Position numbers and translations under genes: made by a program
Notes under the pieces: generated by a model
The model's input: only the letters and a program-made list of their open reading frames with translations
Databases searched by the model: none
What the model was told of the DNA's origin: nothing
From: Pogonophryne albipinna
Taxonomy: Eukaryota > Chordata > Actinopteri > Perciformes > Artedidraconidae
Reading direction: 5' to 3'
Assembly: GCA_028583405.1 (NCBI GenBank)
Contig: CM053256.1
Location: 14,125,087 to 14,189,086 of the forward strand
DNA length: 64,000 nt
In this document: positions 1,199 to 63,546 of the stretch, piece after piece
Position numbering within the stretch: position 1 is the first letter of the stretch
Layout of the letters: the number at the start of each line of letters is the position of its first letter

Positions 1199-1351
1199 TT
1201 GTGTGAAAGGTGATGTTAAGCAAAAGAGGTTCCTAACCCCTGCTAAGGAGAAAACTGGAATGGTAATAGCAAGTTAGTTGTGTGTAATTCTGTTTATTTC
1301 ATACTGGCTACAATCAATGTATATGACAATCTAAATAATTTACTTTCACAG

Positions 1352-2497
1352 GCATCAGCAAAGACCGTGTGTCCCGGGTGGCTCAATATTATGCTGAGAC
1401 TGCTGAGGCTCGCCCAGAGAGAAGAGGTGGTGCACGGCACAGTGAGGAGCAGGCAAGGAGAAGGCAACTCATTGTTGAGCACGTCCAGTCCTTTACCTGC
1501 AGGGCCAGCCATTATGGGCGGAGAGGAGCACCAGGCCGCAAGTATCTCCCCAGTGACCTGAATGTGCGCAAGATGCATGAGCTCTTTGAGGCTCAGAACC
1601 ATGCTCAGACCAGCTACTCCCTCTATTATTCAGTGTTCTCCAAGGATTTCAATCTTGGCTTTGGTCACCCAGCCACAGATGCATGCGCTGATTGTGCCAA
1701 GTACAAGCTCAGGATTGCAGATCCAAACCTAGCTGAGACAGAGAAGAGGATGGAATCTGCATCATTCATCTTGCATCGCCGCCGAGCGCGCGTCTTTTAT
1801 GACCTGTTAGGCAGGGTTGCCGAAGGTCATGTGACCCTCTGTTTTGACATGATGCAAAACATGGTCCTTCCAAAAAACCCAATAGGACAGGCCTATTACT
1901 CGTGGCAGATGTATCTGTACCTGTTTGGTGTGGTTGTGCATGGTGTCCATGCTGATGGAACTTCGACAGCTTTTTTCCAACCTTAGCATAGAGCACACCT
2001 TTCCAGTAAGGGGCCACAGTTATCTCCCTGCAGACCGAGTCTTTGGCAGAATTGAGCAGAAGATCCGGAAAATGGACACAATTCTACTACCACAGGAATA
2101 CCATGCCATCCTGCAGCAATTCGGCCATGTTCACGTTTATGGCAAAGACTGGGAGGCGTTTGATTATAGGTCAGCCGCAAAAGTGTGTGTTAAAGCTCAG
2201 AGGAGCTTTAAAATCAGTGAAGCACGCATGCTTGACTTGAGTACCAACAAGGTTGGTTTAAAGACGTCTTACAATGGGGAGTATTGTTTCCATAGTGTAT
2301 TAAAGCGGGGCAAGCGGTGGGCTGACCTGAAGCCTGAGTTACTTCCAAAGCAGACTTCTGTGAAGGCCGCAAAGAAGCGCGATGTGCTGGCACTATTAGG
2401 AGCAATAGGTGTGTCTGATGTGGTGAGGGCTTTTTATGATGATGCACTGTATCAGGTGACTGACAATGCAGGCCAGAGTGATGAAGATGCAGAGTGA
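1352..2497 (+). pseudogene. Transposase-like (DUF7869-type) pseudogene, last exon, core deleted
   Basis: A coding remnant of an uncharacterised DDE-type protein family common in fish and insect genomes. I associate it from memory with the DUF7869-type domain. The exon begins after a splice-acceptor-like TTTACTTTCACAG (ending 1351) and reads ISKDRVSRVAQYY onward, with the family's N-terminal features: a PERRGG segment, a C-x2-C pair in DACADCAKYK, and a first acidic position in CFDMMQNMVLPKNP. The first frame stops at 1984-1986. The second frame resumes at about 1980 and gives FPVRGHSYLPADRVFGRIE, the conserved C-terminal block, ending at 2497. The expected central block with the second catalytic acid and the GGQN-like motif is absent, so a frame change coincides with an internal deletion. 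It is therefore unlikely to make an active enzyme. GT/GA and ACTC/CA microsatellites flank it on both sides. The family call is fairly secure, the enzymatic role is inferred. Confidence 0.6.
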
Positions 2498-5080: not shown

Positions 5081-6020
5081 NNNNNNNNNNNNNNNNNNNN
5101 NNNNNNNNNNNNNNNNNNNNNNNNNNNNNNNNNNNNNNNNNNNNNNNNNNNNNNNNNNNNNNNNNNNNNNNNNNNNNNNNNNNNNNNNNNNNNNNNNNNN
5201 NNNNNNNNNNNNNNNNNNNNNNNNNNNNNNNNNNNNNNNNNNNNNNNNNNNNNNNNNNNNNNNNNNNNNNNNNNNNNNNNNNNNNNNNNNNNNNNNNNNN
5301 NNNNNNNNNNNNNNNNNNNNNNNNNNNNNNNNNNNNNNNNNNNNNNNNNNNNNNNNNNNNNNNNNNNNNNNNNNNNNNNNNNNNNNNNNNNNNNNNNNNN
5401 NNNNNNNNNNNNNNNNNNNNNNNNNNNNNNNNNNNNNNNNNNNNNNNNNNNNNNNNNNNNNNNNNNNNNNNNNNNNNNNNNNNNNNNNNNNNNNNNNNNN
5501 NNNNNNNNNNNNNNNNNNNNNNNNNNNNNNNNNNNNNNNNNNNNNNNNNNNNNNNNNNNNNNNNNNNNNNNNNNNNNNNNNNNNNNNNNNNNNNNNNNNN
5601 NNNNNNNNNNNNNNNNNNNNNNNNNNNNNNNNNNNNNNNNNNNNNNNNNNNNNNNNNNNNNNNNNNNNNNNNNNNNNNNNNNNNNNNNNNNNNNNNNNNN
5701 NNNNNNNNNNNNNNNNNNNNNNNNNNNNNNNNNNNNNNNNNNNNNNNNNNNNNNNNNNNNNNNNNNNNNNNNNNNNNNNNNNNNNNNNNNNNNNNNNNNN
5801 NNNNNNNNNNNNNNNNNNNNNNNNNNNNNNNNNNNNNNNNNNNNNNNNNNNNNNNNNNNNNNNNNNNNNNNNNNNNNNNNNNNNNNNNNNNNNNNNNNNN
5901 NNNNNNNNNNNNNNNNNNNNNNNNNNNNNNNNNNNNNNNNNNNNNNNNNNNNNNNNNNNNNNNNNNNNNNNNNNNNNNNNNNNNNNNNNNNNNNNNNNNN
6001 NNNNNNNNNNNNNNNNNNNN
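5081..6020. other. Assembly gap (940 N)
   Basis: Run of N. Any gene continuing from either side, including the one suggested by the exons at 3978-4739, cannot be followed across it. Confidence 1.
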
Positions 6021-26581: not shown

Positions 26582-26653
26582 TACAGTACAACCCTGTCTC
26601 CTAAAAATTACGTTCCCACAGAACTAAACTGCATTCTCAATTACGTTTAGCTA

Positions 26654-26810
26654 GAAACGTATTTTCTCCTACGTTACGTTTCTTATGAACGTATCTTAAA
26701 TATGTTTATTTTCTACATATCTTCTAGAAACATATTTTCTCCCACGTTACGTTTCTTATGAACGTATCTTAAATACGTTTATTTTCTACATATCTTTGCC
26801 ATTTATTGTC
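26654..26810. repeat. Tandem ~73-bp duplication in left arm
   Basis: The phrase ACGTTACGTTTCTTATGAAC followed by GTATCTTAAATA occurs twice about 73 bases apart. The same duplication is present in the right arm (about 31910-32055, inverted), so it predates the present element copy. Confidence 0.8.
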
Positions 26811-26939
26811 TTGCTTATAATAATGATAATAGTCATTTATAAATATCATTTTAGAGCACACATTTGAAATCAGTAGGCGAGGCTGTAATTTCTCCAGCTG
26901 TTACTCTCATGAGCGAGGCAGAAGATAATAGTTTTCAAC

Positions 26940-27065
26940 ATGCCAAAAAGCTGCTGTGTCGTTTATTGCACCTCAAACATTAAAACAAATCCAGAGTTAC
27001 GTGTTTCTGTACTTTCTCTAAGAAGAAAGGACAGTAACAGAAGATCTCTGTGGCTTCAGGCTTGA
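26940..27065 (+). pseudogene. Truncated THAP-domain coding sequence, left arm
   Basis: The 41-codon frame starts MPKSCCVVYCTSNIKTNPEL and ends SLWLQA before TGA. It shows the N-terminal MP-x-CC-x3-C pattern and the downstream R-x-x-W expected of a THAP zinc-binding DNA-binding domain (C2CH). The second C-x2-H pair is missing because the sequence diverges after 27048. The full-length autonomous element would be expected to use this domain to bind its own ends. No complete transposase is present here. Confidence 0.6.
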
Positions 27066-28970
27066 TCGCCGTTCAAATGACAGCGTTGGTTTCCCCAAAA
27101 GTGGGCGGGGCTGTAAAGTGACGTAGTTTTACTCTCATCTATTATTCAAAACCATTATATTTATTCTAACGTAAATTACATGCCAGTGTTTTATGTTTTT
27201 ATTTTAAATCGTATAATGTCGGACTTTTTTTCCCGTCTGTGAGGAAAAGAAATGGGGCTTAGAGCCTCAAAATACTGAAATCTGTATTTAAAAAAAAAAA
27301 AAAAAAATTCTTATTTACTCAACAATAACACACAATTATCCTTGTTTTTATTTATTCGTTTAATTCTATAATCTTGGGCTTTTTAGCATGCTTTTTAGCC
27401 GTAAATAAAGTCACCGGAAACAGACGTAGGCCTATAAGGGACATTTTGAGGATACACACAAACCCACTGAACAGATTACCCAAGATCCTCAGCTTGAAGC
27501 TCGTTGATTGGATGTTTAGCCGCAATGCATGTTGGGATATGATGTTAATGCGATATGATATCCGGAAAAAAAAAAGAATAATAATACTACTTTATTCCGA
27601 GTGTGCTTGCTTTTCTCTTTGGAAGTCATCACATAACGGCATTGTAATACACGGTTCGGCTGAATTAAATATTACACATCTGCTGTAGTTCTTTATTTAT
27701 AGAGCCCTGATGAGAAGACTTCTGGACAAACAGGAGAACTGCCGCCAAAACTGAAGATGTGACGTGGATCATAAATATATCAACAATTAAACAACACCTT
27801 GCATTTCTTTTCACAAAATACGTCTCCTTGCAGTATCAACAGTAATTTGGCTGACTTTTATATTTGATCCAATTGGTAGATAGGTTATATTTACACCATA
27901 ACGGTGCACAGCTGATAGAAAAGGACTTGTAGTTTTTAAAGATATTACTGATTTTCTTTGAATATAAGAATGTAAATACTGAGTTGAGAGAATAGTCAGG
28001 GGATTTGGGTGATGGGAGACACATCTATGGAATCACAATTTCAATAGCTTACCATTAAATGACAGATATGCCTTTCTGTCTGTGATGTTTTACAAATCAG
28101 ATATTAATGTGTAGAAGTAAAACATGTTAAATAGTATAGCAATATCCTGTGAAATTATGTAAAAACATGAATAAAACTACACATCTTCAGATGTTATACA
28201 TAAGTGTCCTACAATAATAATACAAAGTTATTATTAGTATGCTGTGTGTACCTTGTGTGCACCGCCTAGTGGTTAAAGCACGTTATTGAATTTTTGTTGT
28301 TGAATAATGTTATTTTTGTTGAATAATGTTACTTTTGTTGAATAATGTTATTTGATGAAAACAATATTAAGAGTACATACTTTCATAGGGGGAAAGTAGA
28401 AGGTCAATGATAGAAATATAGAATATAAAAAATCAAGAAGATACAGTAAGTGATCTCTACAATAAAACCGTTTAGTGCTGGATGTACAAAGATGTTAATA
28501 GGAGGATATGCAAAACAGACAAACTAATTAACCTCTATTTAAACATTAAATAAAACTTTAGGTTAAGGTCTTCTTTTAAATAAGAAAAAAGCTTTGGGGT
28601 ATCTATCTAAAGATAAATATTAAGCCTGACAAAGTACTTAACGTCTAATGTATTGCTTTCCTGCAATGTTAACTATGTTGAAGCACTTATTTTAACTGAT
28701 ATTATACACATTAATTATACTCTTATGTATGTAGATAGTATAAGAAATGTGCAGAATTTGACAGTTTAATGGTGGAGGTATACACACATATTGATAGATG
28801 TCTTGGAATTAACTATTAGTAGAGAATAACGAGTAATTAATATACTTTATAGATATCTGCAGATAAATGTTTAGTCTTCTCAAGCACCAACTATCAAATA
28901 TCTCTCCTGATTGTTGGCACTTGACAATCACCTTTCCCTGAATTTTACTCAGGTGTAACTAAAGTCTGCT
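27049..28970. other. Interior of element I, left of the Kolobok-like insertion
   Basis: 27190-27400 is shared with element III (about 60373-60600), including the phrase TTAAATCGTATAATGTCGGA. 27583-27935 is shared with element II (34165-34492). 28667-28710 recurs at 34763-34806. A 20-21-bp unit (GTTGAATAATGTTATTTTT) repeats three times at 28298-28352. The 104-codon frame at 27374-27688 has no recognised domain. Confidence 0.7.
28298..28352. repeat. Short minisatellite, 3 copies of ~20 bp
   Basis: Three tandem copies of GTTGAATAATGTTATTTTT with single-base differences, inside element I. Confidence 0.85.
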
Positions 28971-29228
28971 TTAAAGAGCCTGTGACACGAGTTTCCCCAA
29001 TCATCCAAACCCATCAATTTGAGTAAATATTGTCCCCTTGAAAACCGTTACTGAACTGATTTTGGATATTTGTACTTTGATAACCATTAATCTGCCCTTC
29101 AATGTTGACCATTTTCTGGATCTTCTCGGGGATTCTTCAAGTCCTGCCAAATTATGTGTGACGTCATTGCGGGCACAGCGCTCCAGCTGCACCGTTCAGG
29201 ATCCCAGCATCTGCATGTAAACGCACGA

Positions 29229-29318
29229 TGGCGCACACAGCAGCAAGCTCAGACAGCGATGACAGTTTAATTTTGAACGTGTCTGAGAGCTCATATGAGG
29301 CTGAAGGATCGGTTTAGG
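29229..29318 (+). pseudogene. Truncated N-terminal ORF of the Kolobok-like element
   Basis: Thirty codons (ATG to TAG), reading MAHTAASSDSDDSLILNVSE and then SSYEAEGSV. The serine/aspartate-rich acidic composition resembles the start of P2X7-receptor-like proteins that fish transposons encode. That comparison is from memory and weak. The reading frame ends early, so this is a remnant. Confidence 0.3.
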
Positions 29319-29381
29319 TTGTATCTGTTAGAAGTTGAGGAATTAGGTGCGTCAATATGGGCGATTATACGGTCATGTAGC

Positions 29382-30249
29382 CAGTGGTGGACTGGGACTA
29401 AAAATCATCCCGGGACTCTCGACCGGACCACTTCGGTACCGCTAGTAAATTGTCAACGGGGGGAGTGGGGGATGTCAGGGGCGGCGGGTGCTGTAGGCTA
29501 GGGAAGGCTAAGCCTTCCCAAATATTTGTGTCACTGCATTCTGGTAAAATACAAATATAATGTATAATGTCTGTGTCTTTGACATTAGCGCTGCTAGCCA
29601 CCTGTGCCCTGTACTACGAAGCCAGTTCAACATACCCTGGATATGTTTGAGTAACAAACAAACTAACAACAAACTAACAAACGAGATCTCGCTAAACTGT
29701 CCTACGACGCTGGTTATCAACTCGGTAAATCAAGCCAGGGTTTCTCTCACCAGCTGAGAGCGCGTTCACGTCTAAGACACGAGTGGATCTGACTTTAATT
29801 ACATTTGACTTGAGTGTTTCGTCAACATAATGTGTTGCTTAAAATAATACTTCTGCATACAGTATGTGACACTGTAAGTGTTGCACGGCCAGATACGGCT
29901 GGAGAAGCTGACTCAGATAAGGAAATATATGATATTATATGATCGATGATCTGATTGATGATGTAATATGAATGATAAGTGCGACACGTCGGCGTCTTCT
30001 CTGCATACGGCAGTTTAAACTGTATTTCCTTTATCCTGTAATATAACTTGAGAGATTTAAACTCCGCACACTGAGTTGATCTCTTTTCTATAGACGCCGG
30101 AGGCGGGCAGCGTCAGGTAAAAAAAGTGATTTAGCCTTCCCAAACCTGAGCCTCACGCGCCGCCTATGGGGATGTACTAGTGACTTATCCGACCGGCCCA
30201 CTTCGGTACCGGCCCATCGGGATTCGTCCCGATGGCCAGTCCGCCACTG
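29382..30249. mobile_element. hAT element A, inserted in the Kolobok-like element
   Basis: Ends CAGTGGTGGACTGGGACT and ATGGCCAGTCCGCCACTG form a hAT-type inverted repeat. The 8-bp flanks CATGTAGC and CACCCAGC match at only five positions, so the target duplication is degraded or the right boundary is off. It contains hAT element B. An internal phrase ACTGTCAACGGGGGGAG recurs just outside the right end at about 30266, which suggests a local duplication. Confidence 0.65.
29476..30167. mobile_element. hAT element B, inserted in hAT element A
   Basis: The left end CAGGGGCGGCGGGTG and the right end CACGCGCCGCCTAT are an imperfect inverted repeat, extended by GGGAAGGCTAA near both ends. The flanks GGGGATGT at 29468-29475 and 30168-30175 are a perfect 8-bp duplication. 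The inner segment with CCTGTACTACGAAGCCAG (about 29605-29760) looks like yet another repeat unit. No transposase frame. Confidence 0.8.
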
Positions 30250-30327
30250 CACCCAGCCCACGTAAACTGTCAACGGGGGGAGCCTCGCTGCGGGGAAACG
30301 GTGGACCTAGTGTCCCGATCGGAGTGG

Positions 30328-30350
30328 GAATAATAATAATAATAATAATC
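30328..30350. repeat. (AAT)n short tandem repeat
   Basis: Seven to eight AAT units within the Kolobok-like element. Confidence 0.9.
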
Positions 30351-31657
30351 CGTGCATTTTATCCATTAATTTCCCCAACATTGTGGTAAAAAAAACACAC
30401 GTTTAATCCATGTTGGTGTACTACAACTACAAAAAGCATCGGTTTGTTTTCTCATCAGGAAATGCAGACCGGCTCAAACAAACGATTTTTAATCATCATC
30501 CTCACGATCATTTAATGTATCATATGTTCGCCGAATTGACATGAAAGCACTAATAAATGTAGTTTAATCCACTTGAGTTTACAACTACAAAAATAATCGA
30601 TTTGTTTTTATATCACATCCTACGGGAGGAAATTCAGCAGCTCTCACTCCCGATTTTTAATCCTAATTTAATCATCATCTTCACCACGATCATTTATGTT
30701 TATGTTCGCCGAATTGACATGAAAGCACTGACAAATATGAATATACTGTAGTCAACTTCATTAAAACGTTATTAACGTGCCTAAACTCAGTAATTCACCA
30801 TTTCTACGCATGACAACACACTTTGTCCGTGTTTCGCTCTCTCACCGCACAGTGAAGCGTTCCCGCATTGACGTCACTTCCGGCTTCCCCCAAAACTTCA
30901 AAATGACTCGAAGGAATTTCCCCGCGATGTTCGAAATTATTGATATTTATCGGAACGGTATCGCATCTTCTTTTTTAAACTGACGGTTCGAGATGACTAG
31001 TAGCCCAATATTTCATTGCACAACAGTTGTTGGGATGCTGTCACAGGCTCTTTAAGGGTTGTTTATATTTCACATCATTAATCAGAATCTGCAGAGTTAC
31101 TAAAGTAAATGTAGTAGAGTAAAAATACCAGGTTAACCTCTGAATTGTAGTGGAGTAGAATATATATTAATGCTGCCCATTATGGATACAAGCGATTTTC
31201 ACCCATGTAGTAATTACATGTTTTTAATGTGTACACACCAATGTGTTTCCTATCGCCTAAACCTCCAGGGCTGTACACAGTTTAATACTGTCAACTTCTA
31301 ATTTTGGGAAAAACAAAAACGTGTTTTAAAACTACAATTCCCAGTAGAGACTTGCCATAGAGAACATGTTGCAAAACACAATAGCCAGCATGTGTAGTTC
31401 TGGGGGGGCGTTCGAGTCCAGTTTTGAATAGTCTGCCGTGGTTTCGTTCCATTTCAAAGAGCTTGACGCTCGGCGTAACCTTGGCGCACTGCCACTCCAA
31501 CATCCAATCACAGAGCTTGAAGATTAATCACGGGGTTTGTCAACGGGACTGTAGTCCAAACCATAGCTGGGGATTATGGGTAGTGTAGTGTCTTCGGCCA
31601 TCCTAAACTGAAATGTTTTTCGGATATCATATCGCATTAACAACACCACATCTGGCG

Positions 31658-31771
31658 TCACAGAGATCTTCTGTTACTGTCCTTTCTTCTTAGAGGAAGT
31701 ACAGAAACACGTAACTCTGGATTTGTTTTAATGTTTGAGGTGCAATAAACGACACAGCAGCTTTTTGGCAT
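31658..31771 (-). pseudogene. Truncated THAP-domain coding sequence, right arm
   Basis: Mirror copy of the left-arm sequence on the minus strand, MPKSCCVVYCTSNIKTNPEL onward. The open frame also extends upstream to an ATG at 31846. It ends at RRSL followed by a stop because the arm diverges there. One amino acid (Pro for Ser in VSVLPL) distinguishes it from the left copy. Confidence 0.6.
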
Positions 31772-32119
31772 GAGAAAACTATTATCTTCTGCCTCGCTCA
31801 TGAGAGTAACAGCTGGAGAAATTACAGCCTCGCCTACTGATTTCAAATGTGTGCTCTAAAATGATATTTATAAATGAATATTATTATAAGCAAGACAATA
31901 AATGGCAAAGATATTTAGAAAATAAACGTATTTAAGATACGTTCATAAGAAACGTAACGTGGGAGAAAATATGTTTCTAGAAGATATGTAGAAAATAAAC
32001 GTATTTAAGATACGTTCATAACAAACGTAACGTGGGAGAAAATACGTTTCTTGCTAAACGTAATTGAGAATGCAGTTTCGTTCTGTGGGAACGTAATTTT
32101 TAGGAAACAGGGTTGTACA

Positions 32120-33077
32120 CAGACCCGGCGGCAGACATACGTCTCTGGGCGGGCATTTGATTTACCGGGATTATTTCCCTGTCTCAATCCAAATTGAACT
32201 GTATCAAATAAAAAGGCACATTTGTCTTGTAGTAAATAAAAAGGGCGACCTGGAGCCAATCCTGCAATTTCCAGGTGAAAGAGTTGACATGCTGAAAACC
32301 CAACCCCTGCAGGGGGTCTGGGGGGATTCTCCCCCACGAGATTTTTTGAAATACTAACATAAAATACACCTTCTGGTGCTCTCTTGAGAAGAAAAATAAA
32401 TAAATCTATTACTACACGACATATTTAAAAAAATGAATGCCATTTTAGTTTTTTGTTACTTTGTTCTGAAAGCTGAACCTGCTGCTCCTCACAGAGAGAA
32501 GAGGAAGAGGCTGTGAATTACTTTACATTGTGGATAAGGGTGGATAGCCCCCATTGTTCTGTGTGTCAAAATGAAAGACAGCCCACACACCTATCAATCA
32601 TCAAACCGTGGGGTCTTATTTCATTACGTGTTGATTTCTATCAACACGTAATGTTGTATCGATAGAGATGTACTACAGCAAAATTATTCTCCGTCGGGAC
32701 TTCCTGCAACAACACCACGTCGTTATCGTGATTCTGATTGGCCAGAAGACATTATCAAAGATGTTCTATTGAGAAGATGATCACTACGTGACAACAGTTT
32801 TCAAACCGTTTCTAGTCTTCGGTATTTACTGCTGTCTGTGCAATTTACTCCGCGCGAGTTGGCGGACTTTATTTAGCTTACTTTAAAATAATTTTTCATG
32901 GTGGGGCTAAGCCATTTCTTGGTATGGCTGTAGCCTACCCCAGTATACCCTGGAACCGCCACTGAACATAATAATAAAACAATTAAAATGTTGTATTCAG
33001 CCCTGATTAAAACAGCGGGCCCAAATCCTGGATGGGCGGGCCCGGCCCCATGGGGCCCGCCCATGACGCCGGGTCTG
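32120..33077. mobile_element. hAT element C, 958 bp, across the right end of element I
   Basis: Starts CAGACCCGGCGGCAGAC and ends ATGACGCCGGGTCTG. GTTGTACA flanks it perfectly (32112-32119 and 33078-33085). That 8-mer consists of the last four bases of element I (GTTG) plus the first four of element I's target duplication (TACA), so this insertion is younger than element I. The interior carries no transposase. Short GGGCCCGCC-type motifs sit near the right end. Confidence 0.9.
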
Positions 33078-33090
33078 GTTGTACAGTATC

Positions 33091-36000
33091 CAACACACTC
33101 TCACTCCATAATCGTCCAGGAGCGACGTTTGGTCAAGGTCCCTTGGCGTGCAGTTGTGACGCTCCTAGGCTCCTTCAGCTTCATAAAGGGACGCAAATAG
33201 CTTTCAACTGATTTCAATGTATTCCCATCTGCAGCGGGATTTGACGCTCATGGAAGCACGGCATTCGTTTGTGTCGGCTGCCCTTAAAGGCAATGTGAGC
33301 GTCCATTCCTATTGGATAACGGAGAATTGTACACCCGGAAGTAAGTATTCCCCTACTGTCGATTGATTTTACAGTGATATCTGCACTACTCATCGACTAA
33401 AAAACACCAGATTATCCTTGTTAATTACACAACATTGATTGGTTTAAATTGTGTGCAATGCTTTTGTATTTTTCCCCTTCGATTCGGAGAAACAACAATT
33501 TTTTCAGAGTAAAGGATAGCAGAAGACACTACACTACCCAGAATCCCCAGCCACCGTTTAGGACTACACCATGTGCTCTGTTTGACAAGCCCCGTGATTA
33601 GTTCTCAAGCTCTGTGATTGGTTGACCTCCAACTGCATTCCATTCATTCCAATGGCTGGCGTCTATGTCACGTGATCTTCAAATTTCTCCCTGTAGAAAA
33701 AAAAAACATGGCCGAACTTCGTTATATTCTCGGTGGAAAATGCCTATTTTAAAGTTAGTTTGGCCATTAAAATGTGTTTTGATGTAATTTGATGCGAGAA
33801 ATATGAGTTGTTATTTCAGATTATGTGTGCAGTGGATGTACATGATCTTTAGTTTGCTAGTTATTACGAAGATTACTTCAGGAAATTGCGTCCATAGAAC
33901 GTTTTCATTGTTACCAAAGTGGTTGCTAGGGACGCTGCTATCGATATTATTTCTGTTATGTTGTGTAACTGTTTAATGATGTTATATTTATTGCTACCCC
34001 CTTCCCCGTCAATGTATAGTGTTGGTCCACAGCGCAAACGTATTAGTTTAACAAAATCCGCATCTTAAAATACGTTATTTTCCCCTGTGCAATTCTAGTC
34101 TCACATTTCACAGCACATCGTTATTAACAAATACCGGAAACAGACCGAAAACATTTTAAAAAAAAATACTTTATTCCGAGTGTGCTTGCTTTTCTCTTTG
34201 AAAGTCATTACATAACGCCATTGTAATACACGGTTCGGCTGCATTAAATATTACACATCTGCCGTAGTTCTGTATTTATAGAGCCCTGATGAGAAGACTT
34301 CTAGACAAACATGAGGAACTGAAAACGTGACGTGGATCATAAATATATCAGCCATTAAACAACATCTTACATTTCTTTTCACACAATACGTCTCCTTGCA
34401 GTATCAACACTAATTCGGCTGACTTTTATATTTGATCCAATTGGTAGATAGGCTGTATTTACACCATAAAGGTGCACAGCTGATATAAAGGGACACCTAG
34501 TGGTTAAAGCATGTTATTGAATTTCATTATTTTATTATTAGATATTAATAGGATCCCTATAAAGTATATTCATTACTAGTTATTCTCTACTAATTAAAGA
34601 CTGTATATAATGACTATTTTGCACATCCCTTTAAAGATTTCAAGATTTTCTAAGGTTTATTGACATATCAAACGGTGTAGTTATGCAATGAATGAAAAAC
34701 TTGGGTCGCAGGTTCCTCAATAGTGCATTACAAGACATCTATCAATATTTGTGCATACCTCCAGCAATGTTAACTATGTTGAAGCACTTATTTTAACTGA
34801 TATTATATTATTCTCTTATGATGTATGTAGATATTTCATCTCCGGCCTTTTCAGGTATTGAACAATCAATAAATAAAGAACACAGAATTGTTAAATATAA
34901 AACACAGAATTTGTGTGATTATACTAAATGATGTAAATAAACACCACTGCATATTTACAACTGTACACATGCTGATGTAACGCAAATGTTTCCAACTTGG
35001 GATCAATAAAGTATATATTATCTTAAGATGATCGATGGCTACTGCCATATTTGCAAAATGTGCCTCTGAACCTTGACAAGTGCATGTTTCAGGCTTATCA
35101 ATTAATGTAATGTAATGTTATCAATTAACAACAGGGGTCACAAACATAAGACCAGCTGTTAAATAAAGCTCTTCTGACCTTAGCTGGCATGTGGGTATAT
35201 ATATTAATGCTGCCCATTATGGACACAAGCAATTTTCACCCATTTATTAATTATATGTTTTAAATTTGAGTGTTTCCTATCCCCTAAACCTCCAGGGATG
35301 TACACAGTTTAATACTGACAACTTCTTATTATGGGAAATACGAAAACGTCTTTTAAAACTACAACTCCCAGTAGAGACGTGCCATAGATGGAGAACATGT
35401 TGCGAAACACAATAGCCAGCATGTGTAGTTCTGGGGACGGGGTGGGGGAGGGGGGGACGCGGTGGACCCGTTCAAATCCAGTTTTGGACAGTCTGCCGTG
35501 GTTCCATCCCATTTCAAGTGCTGTTCGACGCTCGGCGTAACCCTCGGAGCACACTCTCCAATCACAGAGCTTGAGGTTTGTCAAGCGAAGCAGAGAGAAT
35601 ACTTACTTCCCGGTGTAATATTCTCTAAAGCAAATGACCTGCTCCGACCCTCGGTCCTGACTGACTCCAACTTGTGTTTATTAATCAAACAAATAAATAA
35701 ACACAAGGATAATTATGTGTTATTGTTGAGTAAATGGAGAATTGCACAGGGGAAAATAACGTAGGCTATATATGCCACAATTTTAGATCCGGATTTTGTT
35801 AAACTAATACGTTTGCGCTGTGGACCAACACTATGCATTGACGGGGAAGGGGGTAGCAATAAAGATAACACCATTAAACAGTTACACAACATAACAGAAA
35901 TAATATCGATAGCAGCGTCCCTAGCAACAAGTAACAAGTAGTTAATAATAAAATACATTAAGAAAAATGCATTTTAAACAGTCATTAAAAAGCAACACAA

Positions 36001-37059
36001 TCTACCTGCATTGCATTATTCTAAACGTGTAATAACGTGCTTTAACCAGTAGGTGGTTTGGGTTAAAAAGCTGTCAAGTTTACAGTGTTAACAAAATAAA
36101 ATATACTGCTGTTTCTAGTTTACGACGGATATATTTAGTTATTGTTTTGATATTTGTAACACAAAAGCGATGGAAAAAACCCACAGCAACACAGAAAAGA
36201 TGGTCTTAACATGACCCAGCGGTCTAGTAGTTAATAAAAAGCAATAATATCAAAACAAAATATTACTACTAACTTTATTGTGAAATTCAAACTGAACGGT
36301 AAAAGAATAGTTTCCGGTCTATTCTGAGCCCGATCTCTGTAGATAAATAAAAATAAAGAACTACGACAGATGTGTATCTTTAATGCAGCCGAACCATTTA
36401 TTACAATGCATTCATGTGATGACTTTCAAAGAGTAAAGCAAGCACTGCTGAATAAAGTATGATTTTATCTTTTACGAAACGTTTTTTTTCATATGGAATG
36501 CAGTTGGAGGTCAACCAATCACAGAGCTTGAGAACTAATCACGGGGTTTGTCAAACAGAGCACATGGTGTAGTCCTAAACGATAGCTGGGGATTCTGGGT
36601 AGTGTAGTGTCTTCTGCCATCCTTTACTCCGAAAAATGCATTTCTAAAAATATTTGTTTCTCCGAATCGAAGGGGAAAAATACAAAAGCATTGCACACAA
36701 TTTAAACCAATCAATGTTGTGTAATTAACAAGGATAATCTGGTGTTTTTTAGTCGATGAGTAGTGCAGATATCGCTGTAAAATCAATCGACAGTAAGGGG
36801 AATACTTACTTCCGGGTGTCCAATTCTCCGTTATCCAATGGGAATGGACGCTCACATTGCCTTTAAGGGCAGCCTACACAAACGAATGCCGTGCTTCCAT
36901 GAGCGTCAAATCCCGCCGCAGATGGGAATACATTGCAATCAGTTGAAAGCTATTTGCGTCCCTTTATGAAGCTGAAGGAGCCTAGGAGCGTCACAACTGC
37001 ACGCCACGGGACCCTGACCAAACGTCGCTCCTGGACGATTATGGAGTGAGAGTGTGTTG
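33091..37059. mobile_element. Element II: long-armed inverted-repeat transposon with 7-bp target duplication
   Basis: The terminal inverted repeats begin CAACACACTCTCACTCC and extend, with few mismatches, for roughly 500-600 bp (left arm to about 33600, right arm from about 36530). Perfect CAGTATC lies at 33084-33090 and 37060-37066. Further inward, 33905-34100 matches 35735-35945 inverted, and 34165-34270 matches 36355-36475 inverted. Two long segments are shared in direct orientation with element I (34165-34492 and 35198-35580). Open frames within it are short and unrecognised. It is evidently non-autonomous and related to elements I and III. Confidence 0.85.
34635..34760 (-). mobile_element. 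LINE 3' tail within element II
   Basis: Plus-strand TTTCAAGATTTTCTAAGGTT continuing TATTGACATATCAAAC is the reverse of a retroposon 3' end like that of the LINE at 62322-63546. The TTGGGTCGCAGGTTCCTC phrase resembles 62383-62403. Confidence 0.45.
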
Positions 37060-37066
37060 CAGTATC

Positions 37067-41639: not shown

Positions 41640-42539
41640 CTGTCTTTGTCAGTCATCCTTGTACGTAACTGCGAAACCAAAATGTTCCCAAACCGGAGAC
41701 TTCAATGATGCTGGAGGATTTTCGAGCTCAACTTTATCTGCGTTCGCCATTTCGACAGTTCCTCAAATTACTGACTACATTTGAACGCATCCCTCTGACA
41801 AATTACTCTGAATGCTGCGACGCAGCACCTGAGATTACTTCCAAGAAGTTGTTCACGTTCTCAATTTTTTACGTTATATTCGTTCGGTACACTTCGGTAC
41901 ACACGTGTACCGAACCGAAGGGCCCGTACCGATACGTGTACCGTTACACCCCTAGTATTCACTGAATTTCACTCTGTCCTAAACTTGTTGGAGCTCCTGC
42001 CCCACCCCCCCCCTCCCTCCCTGTGAGCCCAGTGTGCTCTGATTGGTCGGGACGTTGAGAGTCTCGCTGCTGCAGTGTGAGCTCGCTGGCGGTGTGTTTT
42101 CCGGGTCGGCGATACAGCGAGACTCATCCTGAGCACACACAAACACTCACAGCCGAAGTAAAAACAATAAGTGTGGCTTGATATTGAGTAAGAAAAATTT
42201 TGATAAACGCTGTGAGAATGAGTCTGCGGAGAGCATTTCTCCGCGATCCCAACTCGTCTTTTACCAGCGTTCAGGGAGCTCCATGCAAGTCAATGGAGAG
42301 GGGTCTGCCTGCAGGCCTGCACTCTCAGGACAGTTCCGGTGTAGGCTGCACTCTCAGGACACCTGCACTGTCAGTACAGGAAGTGACGATTCTGACGAAC
42401 ACGTTTTTTCCCCGGCCCCGAAAGACTCGTTTGATGGAAGTTTTCAAATCACAAGTCCGCCCATGAGTCCGCCCACCGTGCACTTTGGGTCGGCCTTGGT
42501 CAAGCCCTTTTGACCCCCCCCAGCCTGGTTCTCGTAAAA

Positions 42540-60127: not shown

Positions 60128-60134
60128 TATATTG

Positions 60135-60647
60135 CAACCCAGTCTCACTGCATTTCGTGTTATAGTCACGACATTTAATCTATTGATTCGTGTTCACCAA
60201 CACGATTTTCCCCTTTTTTTCGTGTTGCACAGCACGATTTTAAAAGCAATGTATTTCTATTGGTAATGTGTTTCGTGCCTGCAACACATCTTTTTGTCCG
60301 GTCGGGTCTTGGAAGACTGGAAGCTGTGTGGTTCATAAAAACATGTTCTTACTCAATATCAAGCCACGATTATTGTTTTTATTTTAAATCGTATAATGTC
60401 GGACTTTTTTTGCCATCCGTGAGGAAAATAAATGGGGCTCAGAGCCTCAGAATACTGAAATCTGTATTTATTTTCTTTTATCTTTTTTTCCTTCTAATTT
60501 GTTATTCTTTTCTAAATAACACACTGTTATTTAATCAACAATAACACACAATTATCCTTGTTTTTATGTATTTGTTTAATTCTATAATATCAGGCTTTTT
60601 TGATAAAATGTCGTGACTAAAACACGAAATGCCGTGAGACTGGGTTG
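60135..60647. mobile_element. Element III: 513-bp relative of element I with 7-bp duplication
   Basis: About 40-bp terminal inverted repeats, starting CAACCCAGTCTCACTGCATT and ending in the mirror ...GCCGTGAGACTGGGTTG. TATATTG is perfect on both sides (60128-60134 and 60648-60654). Its interior at about 60373-60600 is shared with 27190-27400 in element I (phrases TTAAATCGTATAATGTCGGA and AACACACAATTATCCTTG). The ends share CAACCC.GTCTC with element I. It is a small, non-coding, presumably non-autonomous derivative. Confidence 0.85.
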
Positions 60648-60654
60648 TATATTG

Positions 60655-62321: not shown

Positions 62322-63546
62322 CAAGGTTCAAGGTTCTTTATTGTCAAACTAACATAGCTACAGAGTAATTATGTCGTTGAAAATCTTAGGTCACAGGTTT
62401 CTCCAACAATGCAACACAATAATACAGATAAGCAGAGAATATTAAAGCAATATTAAAGTATATTATATTAAAAGTAATACAAAAGAAAAATAGTTCTAAA
62501 AAAAGTGAGAAAAAGTGGAATAGTGCAATACGAGTCTACAAGTTATTGGGACGATGTATTAGATAATATATAAATAATTACTAAGTAGCAGATGAATGTT
62601 ATGAAATTGTTTCAGCAGTTCAGTTGTTTAACAGTCTTATTGCCTGCAGGATGAAGCTGTCTCTGAATCTGGTTGTTCTTGTCAGGATGCTGCGGTAACG
62701 CCTGCCAGACGGCAGCAGACTGAACAGTTTGTGGCTGGGGTGATGGGGTCTTTTATAATCCTGAGGGATTTCTTCCTGAGCCACTGGGAGTAAAGGTCCT
62801 CCATGGATGGCAGCTCCGTCCTGGTGATGTTCTGTGCAGTTTTCACCACCCTCTGTAAAGCCTTACGATTGAGGGCGGTGCAGCAGCCGTACCAGGCCGT
62901 GATGCAGCCAGTCAGGTTACTCTCTATGGTGCACCTGTAGAAGCTGCAGAGTATCCTGGAGTCCATTTTGAACCTCCTCAGCCTGCGGAGGAAGAAGAGC
63001 CGCTGTCGAGCTTTCTTGGTGATGGTGGTGGTGTGAAGAGTCCATGTCAGGTCCTCAGTGATGTGGACCCCAAGGAACCTGAAGCTGCTGACTCTCTCCA
63101 CCGCAGTCCCATTGATGGCGATGGAGGCGTGACCCTCTCTCTGCTGCTTCCTGTAATCCACAATCAGCTCCTTTGTTTTGCTGACATTGAGATGGAGGTT
63201 GTTATCCTGGCACCAAGATGTCAGTTTTTCGACCTTCTCTCTGTACGCCGTCTCGTCGCCGTCTGTGATCTGGCCGATGACGGTCGTGTCGTCAGCAAAC
63301 TTCACGATGGTGTTGGAGCTGTGTATGGCCACGCAGTCGTGAGTGAACAGGGAGTAGAGGAGAGGGCTGAGCACGCAGCCTTGAGGGGCTCCGGTGTTCA
63401 GGATCAGGGTGGAGGATGTGATGTTTCCCACCCGCACTACCTGGGGTCTGCCCGTCAGGAAGTTCAGGATCCAGTCACAGAGGGCGCTGTTGAGTCCGAG
63501 GTCTCTGAGCTTGATGGCCAGCTTGGAGGGCACAATGGTATTGAAT
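62322..63546 (-). mobile_element. 5'-truncated non-LTR retrotransposon
   Basis: The minus-strand element comprises the coding remnant at 62638-63546 and a ~315-bp 3' untranslated region ending TTGACAATAAAGAACCTTGA then ACCTTGA. It is a CR1/L2/Rex-group LINE judged from the protein. The 5' side stops within the reverse-transcriptase domain, exactly where the MITE at 63547 begins, so the MITE either cut it or inserted beside the truncation. Confidence 0.8.
62682..63546 (-). pseudogene. LINE reverse transcriptase, C-terminal two-thirds, frameshifted
   Basis: This domain would copy LINE RNA into DNA at a nicked target. About 287 codons remain: [20 protein letters not shown] at the N-terminal side, the [16 protein letters not shown] core (about residues 48-63 of the open frame), the catalytic FADD box (residues 79-82), then the thumb region with [12 protein letters not shown]. 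The first catalytic aspartate, expected just upstream, is lost with the 5' truncation. Near 62740-62750 one base is missing relative to the family: the open frame ends [11 protein letters not shown], while the +1 frame continues with [19 protein letters not shown] to a stop near 62638. It is not functional. Confidence 0.85.

What the first reader, a model, noticed from the sequence alone, without database searches (positions are those of the whole stretch)
26582..37066. A transposon family with long inverted arms, CAAC ends and 7-bp target duplications
Elements I (26589-32115), II (33091-37059) and III (60135-60647) all start CAAC(C/A)C and end with the mirror. All have perfect 7-bp duplications: TACAGTA, CAGTATC and TATATTG. 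They share internal blocks with each other. Common fish DNA transposons duplicate 2 (Tc1), 4 (TTAA), 8 (hAT) or 8-9 bp (MULE), so a consistent 7 bp is unusual. A THAP remnant in element I suggests a P-like source, but the superfamily is not settled. This may be an under-described group.
Basis: partly seen in the sequence, partly recalled or inferred. Interest (0 to 1): 0.78.

Follow-up and report, generated by a model that had tools for sequence, protein, structure and literature searches.

The report
Galileo-like foldback transposons in fish
Three dead jumping-gene copies with long mirror-image ends and 7-base insertion scars sit in this stretch of probable fish DNA; they look most like the P-element group, where 7-base scars are already known from flies, so this is a probable new member of a known kind and not a new class.

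Summary
Elements I (26589-32115), II (33091-37059) and III (60135-60647) have inverted arms (457, 553 and 46 aligned bases), CAAC...GTTG ends, and target duplications of exactly 7 bp: TACAGTA, CAGTATC, TATATTG. The 3' duplication of I lies at 33082-33088, pushed away by a nested hAT-like element (32120-33077) with its own 8-bp duplication. The duplications of I and II overlap by 5 of 7 bases. I and II share collinear interior blocks (the two longest 88% and 78%) but have different outer arms. The left arm of I carries a decayed half THAP domain; the right arm holds a shorter copy. No catalytic transposase remnant was found.

The vertebrate P elements I read about (Pdre2, Izanagi) make 8 bp. 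Best reading: non-autonomous, foldback-type, P-superfamily-like elements once moved in trans by a THAP transposase. Membership is unproven: the genome search did not complete (12 attempts) and no autonomous copy was seen. Dada and Kolobok fail on defining features.

The parts
26582..26588 (+). 5' target duplication of element I, TACAGTA
26589..27052 (+). left arm of element I, holding a 73-bp direct tandem repeat twice (element positions 63-208)
   Evidence: arms 10 mismatches in 457 aligned, 7 gap columns; TRF period 73, 2.0 copies
26940..27111 (+). THAP-like relic at the inner end of the left arm: MPKSCCVVYCTSN...WLQA (26940-27062), a stop, then LDRRSND... in another frame (27061-27111)
   Evidence: THAP E 0.0061 up to the stop, 1.9e-4 with the frame break read through
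28971..31055 (.). nested Kolobok-like TTAA element (28975-31051, ends AGAGCCTGTGACA, TTAA on both sides) inside element I, itself holding a hAT-like element 29382-30249 whose flanking 8-mers agree at only 5 of 8 bases
   Evidence: naming by Kolobok features in PMC6004289 (passages)
31659..32115 (-). right arm of element I with the same two 73-bp repeats and a shorter copy of the THAP-like stretch (31661-31771, minus strand, stops before WLQA)
   Evidence: no THAP match on its own
32112..33085 (.). nested hAT-like element 32120-33077 (ends CAGACCCGGCG) with 8-bp duplication GTTGTACA, cut into the 3' junction of element I
33082..33088 (+). 3' target duplication of element I, TACAGTA, displaced by the nested hAT-like element
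33084..33090 (+). 5' target duplication of element II, CAGTATC (overlaps the duplication of I by 5 bases)
33091..37059 (.). element II, 3969 bp; outer arms 33091-33643 / 36493-37059 (15 mismatches in 553 aligned, 14 gap columns); further inner inverted pairs
37060..37066 (+). 3' target duplication of element II, CAGTATC
60128..60134 (+). 5' target duplication of element III, TATATTG
60135..60647 (.). element III, 513 bp, arms of 46 bp (3 mismatches); interior related to element I
60648..60654 (+). 3' target duplication of element III, TATATTG

Best explanation
Elements I, II and III are non-autonomous, foldback-type cut-and-paste transposons, most likely of the P superfamily and of the 7-bp (Galileo/1360-like) kind. 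A THAP-bearing, RNase-H-type transposase made elsewhere in the genome would have bound the arms, cut at CAAC...GTTG and joined the element to a target cut with a 7-bp stagger. Shown: the inverted arms, the three 7-bp duplications, shared interiors, different outer arms, and the half THAP relic in the left arm of I with a shorter copy in its right arm. Inferred: the P-superfamily transposase, its binding to the arms, movement in trans, and exchange of outer arms between copies by recombination.
For: 7-bp duplications in 3 of 3 elements, exactly 7; chance 248 of 2,000,000 per pair. THAP relic in the left arm of I, with 6 further single-contig proteins carrying the same arm stretch, 79-85% identical by BLASTP. 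Published P-superfamily features: modal 7 bp for 1360 and 8 bp for P (PMC3276498, passages); 7 bp, THAP and D-D-E transposase in Galileo (PMC4168063, passages); Galileo arms of 300 bp-1.2 kb, direct tandem repeats in the arms of some subfamilies (PMC3573991, passages), compare the 73-bp repeats in I; the terminal ~40 bp are conserved between Galileo subfamilies while the THAP footprint next to them is not found in others (PMC3688188 section 2.6), compare the shared last bases and different outer arms here. Medaka Izanagi is a fish precedent for a non-autonomous P-like element with a degenerate THAP domain (PMC2820524, passages).
Against: No P transposase catalytic part was found: Pfam over six frames of II gave 0 families at E<=1; over six frames of I without its nested insert, only THAP plus one chance-level hit, Adeno_E1B_55K E 0.35; over six frames of III only one chance-level hit, E 0.07. 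The THAP match is below Pfam's cut-off and the right arm alone has none. THAP also occurs in Kolobok transposases, so it does not prove P. None of 3 duplications fits the GTANTAC (Galileo) or GTTNAAC (1360) target motif. The fifth base is C or A where the P consensus YARNG wants G. The vertebrate P elements I read about have 8 bp. In PMC2775673 Galileo subfamilies are described as highly similar as a whole, unlike the outer arms here. The end of I matches the Pdre2 terminus at 9 of 13; this is reached by 72 of 9426 CA-starting and 1 of 454 CAAC-starting words, the hAT-like control has 8, II only 5 and III 7, and the look was post hoc, so I do not count it, although its 6-base core CCTGTC in that place occurs in 0 of 9426 others.
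Confidence: 0.6

Rival explanations
1. The elements belong to another, perhaps undescribed, superfamily with a 7-bp staggered cut; the THAP fragment is a captured passenger or comes from a THAP-bearing transposase that is not P.
For: THAP is found only in element I and not in II or III; no catalytic domain seen; ends and target sites do not match P, Galileo or 1360 motifs.
Against: THAP + 7 bp + long internally repetitive arms together are published for Galileo.
Confidence: 0.25
2. Dada-type transposons, which make 6-7 bp duplications in fish.
For: Duplication length (PMC3706591, PMC8869645; passages).
Against: Dada-U6 elements have no terminal inverted repeats, and Dada with clearly definable ends sit in small RNA genes (one non-RNA-gene insertion is told); these elements have long inverted arms and no Rfam family reached its gathering score anywhere in the window.
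Confidence: 0.03
3. MULE/Foldback or hAT elements whose 8-10 bp duplications happen to read as 7.
For: Foldback structure has been linked to Mutator-like elements; Tetris is filed there with 8-10 bp (PMC4079207, passages).
Against: The 8th base differs in 3 of 3 elements; ends are CAAC; no MULE or hAT domain found in the frames scanned of I, II and III.
Confidence: 0.08
4. Kolobok elements, which carry THAP.
For: THAP relic.
Against: Kolobok targets TTAA and has AG/RR ends (PMC6004289, passages); 0 of 3 elements here do.
Confidence: 0.01

Closest known systems
Galileo (Drosophila, P superfamily; subfamilies Kepler, Newton)
   Same: 7-bp duplications; long inverted arms with direct tandem repeats in some subfamilies; non-autonomous copies made mostly of arms; THAP in the transposase; conserved extreme ends between subfamilies
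   Different: Target consensus GTANTAC not met by 3 of 3; no transposase seen here; vertebrate host (inferred); arms of III only 46 bp; outer arms of I and II show no BLAST match
1360 (Drosophila, P superfamily)
   Same: Modal 7-bp duplication
   Different: Target motif GTTNAAC not met; no sequence comparison made here
Pdre2 (zebrafish P element)
   Same: P element of a vertebrate, CA...TG ends
   Different: 8-bp duplication, 13-bp arms; terminus match 9 of 13 at best, post hoc
Izanagi (medaka non-autonomous P-like element)
   Same: Fish, non-autonomous, degenerate THAP exons, begins CAA
   Different: 8-bp duplication, 27-bp arms; no terminus similarity above background
Dada (fish)
   Same: 6-7 bp duplication
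   Different: No terminal inverted repeats (Dada-U6), inserted mostly in small RNA genes

Membership tests
P superfamily | Transposase with THAP and RNase-H-like D-D-E domain | tested here: inconclusive
   Half a THAP domain in the left arm of I, below Pfam's cut-off; no catalytic domain in six frames of I (without nested insert), II and III; expected for a non-autonomous copy
P superfamily | 7- or 8-bp target duplication | tested here: met
   7 bp in 3 of 3; P 8, 1360 7, Galileo 7
P superfamily | Terminal consensus YARNG as quoted in PMC2820524 | tested here: not met
   CAACC / CAACA: fifth base C or A instead of G; the Pdre2 terminus CATAC does not fit it either, so the feature is loose
Galileo | Long, internally repetitive inverted arms | tested here: met
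   I: 457 aligned bases with two 73-bp repeats per arm; II: 553, tandem repeats not looked for by TRF; III not: 46
Galileo | Target consensus GTANTAC | tested here: not met
   TACAGTA, CAGTATC, TATATTG
Galileo | Sequence homology of the transposase to Galileo | not testable with these tools
Dada | Insertion in small RNA genes | tested here: not met
   0 Rfam matches at gathering score in the window
Dada | No terminal inverted repeats (Dada-U6) | tested here: not met
Kolobok | TTAA target | tested here: not met
   0 of 3

The most novel reading that the evidence does not exclude
A vertebrate branch of the P superfamily with a 7-bp stagger and Galileo-type foldback arms that keeps its interior but swaps its outer arms, keeping only the last 12 or so bases, so that 7-bp cutting and foldback structure exist outside flies.
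Probability: 0.35. Interest if true: 0.55.

Novelty: new member of a known kind. Interest (0 to 1): 0.38.

Why it matters
If the P assignment holds, the 7-bp stagger known from 1360 and Galileo would reach vertebrates, next to the 8-bp vertebrate P elements Pdre2 and Izanagi. That would make the 7/8-bp split testable as an old division within the superfamily. Long-armed copies are also candidate sites of inversion: Galileo causes natural inversions in Drosophila (PMC2775673, passages).

Tried and rejected
Autonomous copy: Pfam over six frames of I without its nested insert, of II and of III found no transposase besides THAP; of the nested elements only the open frames among the 10 were scanned. 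Protein searches (3 of 3 used) gave 7 short proteins from unnamed ENA contigs of 518-1616 bp, 6 with the same arm stretch and one (P0008) with only a piece at its inner end. Of the 6 scanned (P0008 was not), 0 reached Pfam's THAP cut-off: P0001-P0004 gave no THAP match at E<=1, P0006 E 0.014 and P0007 E 0.15. None is a full transposase. Solved structures: no match for the frame, one irrelevant match for the mixed reading. Viral and bacterial contigs: no relative or exact terminus, as expected for animal DNA. Literature search for the termini as text: 9 papers, none opened, judged by the listing to be unrelated. Searches aimed at 7-bp, foldback or P elements in fish listed no fish element of this kind except Dada, but several lists were cut (20 of 21, 20 of 43, 25 of 233, 12 of 101) and were judged by title and abstract; most subscription papers and Repbase/Dfam are not held, so absence from print is not claimed. 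The Pdre2 terminus resemblance was set aside as post hoc. A first chance estimate was inflated by the run of N and by counting the elements' own ends; one search replaces it.

Full report
What is there. The three elements, their inverted arms and their 7-bp duplications are confirmed. Element I spans 5527 bp but holds a nested TTAA-flanked, Kolobok-like element (28975-31051), which itself holds a hAT-like element (29382-30249) whose flanking 8-mers agree at only 5 of 8 bases. Without this insert I is 3446 bp, against 3969 bp for II. A second hAT-like element (32120-33077), with a perfect 8-bp duplication GTTGTACA, sits exactly across the 3' junction of I, so the 3' TACAGTA of I is found at 33082-33088. 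The duplications of I and II overlap in the string TACAGTATC; one was inserted right beside the other, and the order cannot be told.

Strength. A 7-bp direct repeat at random boundaries occurs in 248 of 2,000,000 pairs. In each of 3 elements lengths 4-6 and 8-10 fail and 7 matches. Element I has one extra degree of freedom, because a nested element must be skipped.

Relatedness. I and II share collinear blocks, the two longest 381 columns at 88% and 398 columns at 78%, with several shorter ones, some inverted. I and III share 227 aligned columns at 74%; II and III share 53 columns at 91%. Outer arms of I and II show no BLAST match at E 1e-3, apart from the inner part of the arms of II (element positions 423-534), which matches a stretch just inside the right arm of I. 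Termini support I-III and II-III, not I-II on its own. So this is one group with related interiors, very short conserved ends and different outer arms.

Arms. I: 10 mismatches in 457 aligned bases; II: 15 in 553; III: 3 in 46. Each arm of I holds a 73-bp unit twice, about 96% alike.

THAP. The left arm reads MPKSCCVVYCTSNIKTNPELRVSVLSLRRKDSNRRSLWLQA from 26940 and then meets a stop; LDRRSND... follows in another frame. The right arm holds a shorter copy that stops before WLQA. Pfam THAP: left arm E 0.0061 up to the stop, 1.9e-4 with the frame break read through, positions 1-43 of 87, 22.6 bits, just below the cut-off of 23.9; right arm none at E<=10, and none for its longer open frame at E<=1. 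Proteins P0001-P0004 and P0006-P0007 from unnamed ENA contigs carry the same stretch at 79-85% identity. P0001 and P0004 end right after WLQA, P0006 and P0007 run on in the non-THAP frame, P0002 has the LDR-SND piece in its other frame, and P0003 departs earlier; so the relic seems to have been multiplied as part of arms and not kept as a gene. P0008 matches only the later part.

What it is. The mechanism most likely is cut-and-paste in trans by a THAP transposase with a 7-bp stagger. Within published groups that I could read, 7 bp is the modal length for 1360 (274 of 279 sites in the paper's table, PMC3276498, passages) and typical for Galileo (PMC4168063, passages; three copies with 8 bp are told there), both P superfamily. 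Galileo also has long arms, in some subfamilies with tandem repeats (PMC3573991, passages), in which extra THAP binding sites were shown for one of them (PMC3688188, abstract and section 2.6). The vertebrate P elements that I read about, Pdre2 and Izanagi, have 8 bp (PMC10983969, a preprint, and PMC2820524; passages), and so do the Anopheles P elements and P-MITEs (PMC1562414, passages). The closest match in kind is therefore Galileo-like. Membership in the P superfamily is probable (0.6) and not shown: no catalytic domain was found, THAP is also in Kolobok (PMC6004289, passages), and the Galileo and 1360 target motifs are not met.

Rejected. Dada (6-7 bp) has no terminal inverted repeats in Dada-U6 and sits mostly in RNA genes (PMC3706591, passages; PMC8869645, passages); no Rfam family reached its gathering score in the window. 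Kolobok targets TTAA. The foldback element Tetris, filed as Mutator, has 8-10 bp (PMC4079207, passages).

Limits. The own-genome search was asked 12 times and never answered. Repbase and Dfam are not held. Duplication length rests on 3 copies. Novelty is therefore set at new member of a known kind.

Noticed in passing
26582-33090: Nesting in one place: hAT-like inside Kolobok-like inside element I, a second hAT-like element across the 3' end of I, and elements I and II within the same 9-base target.
   Followed up: yes
1339-2497 (+): Two overlapping open frames (215 and 203 aa) of a transposase-like protein (impression from reading, not from a call); the second has a weak Pfam match to DUF7869 (E 0.014); flanked by inverted CA/TG-rich repeats at about 992-1141 / 2498-2655.
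   Followed up: partly
62682-63545 (-): Reverse transcriptase fragment (RVT_1 E 1.4e-16) with a match to the ALKBH8_N model (E 6.4e-15); that this model often accompanies fish LINE proteins is recalled.
   Followed up: partly
5081-6020: Run of 940 N, an assembly gap.
   Followed up: no
42156-42208: A 54-column stretch 85% similar to part of element III (positions 197-250), outside the three elements.
   Followed up: no
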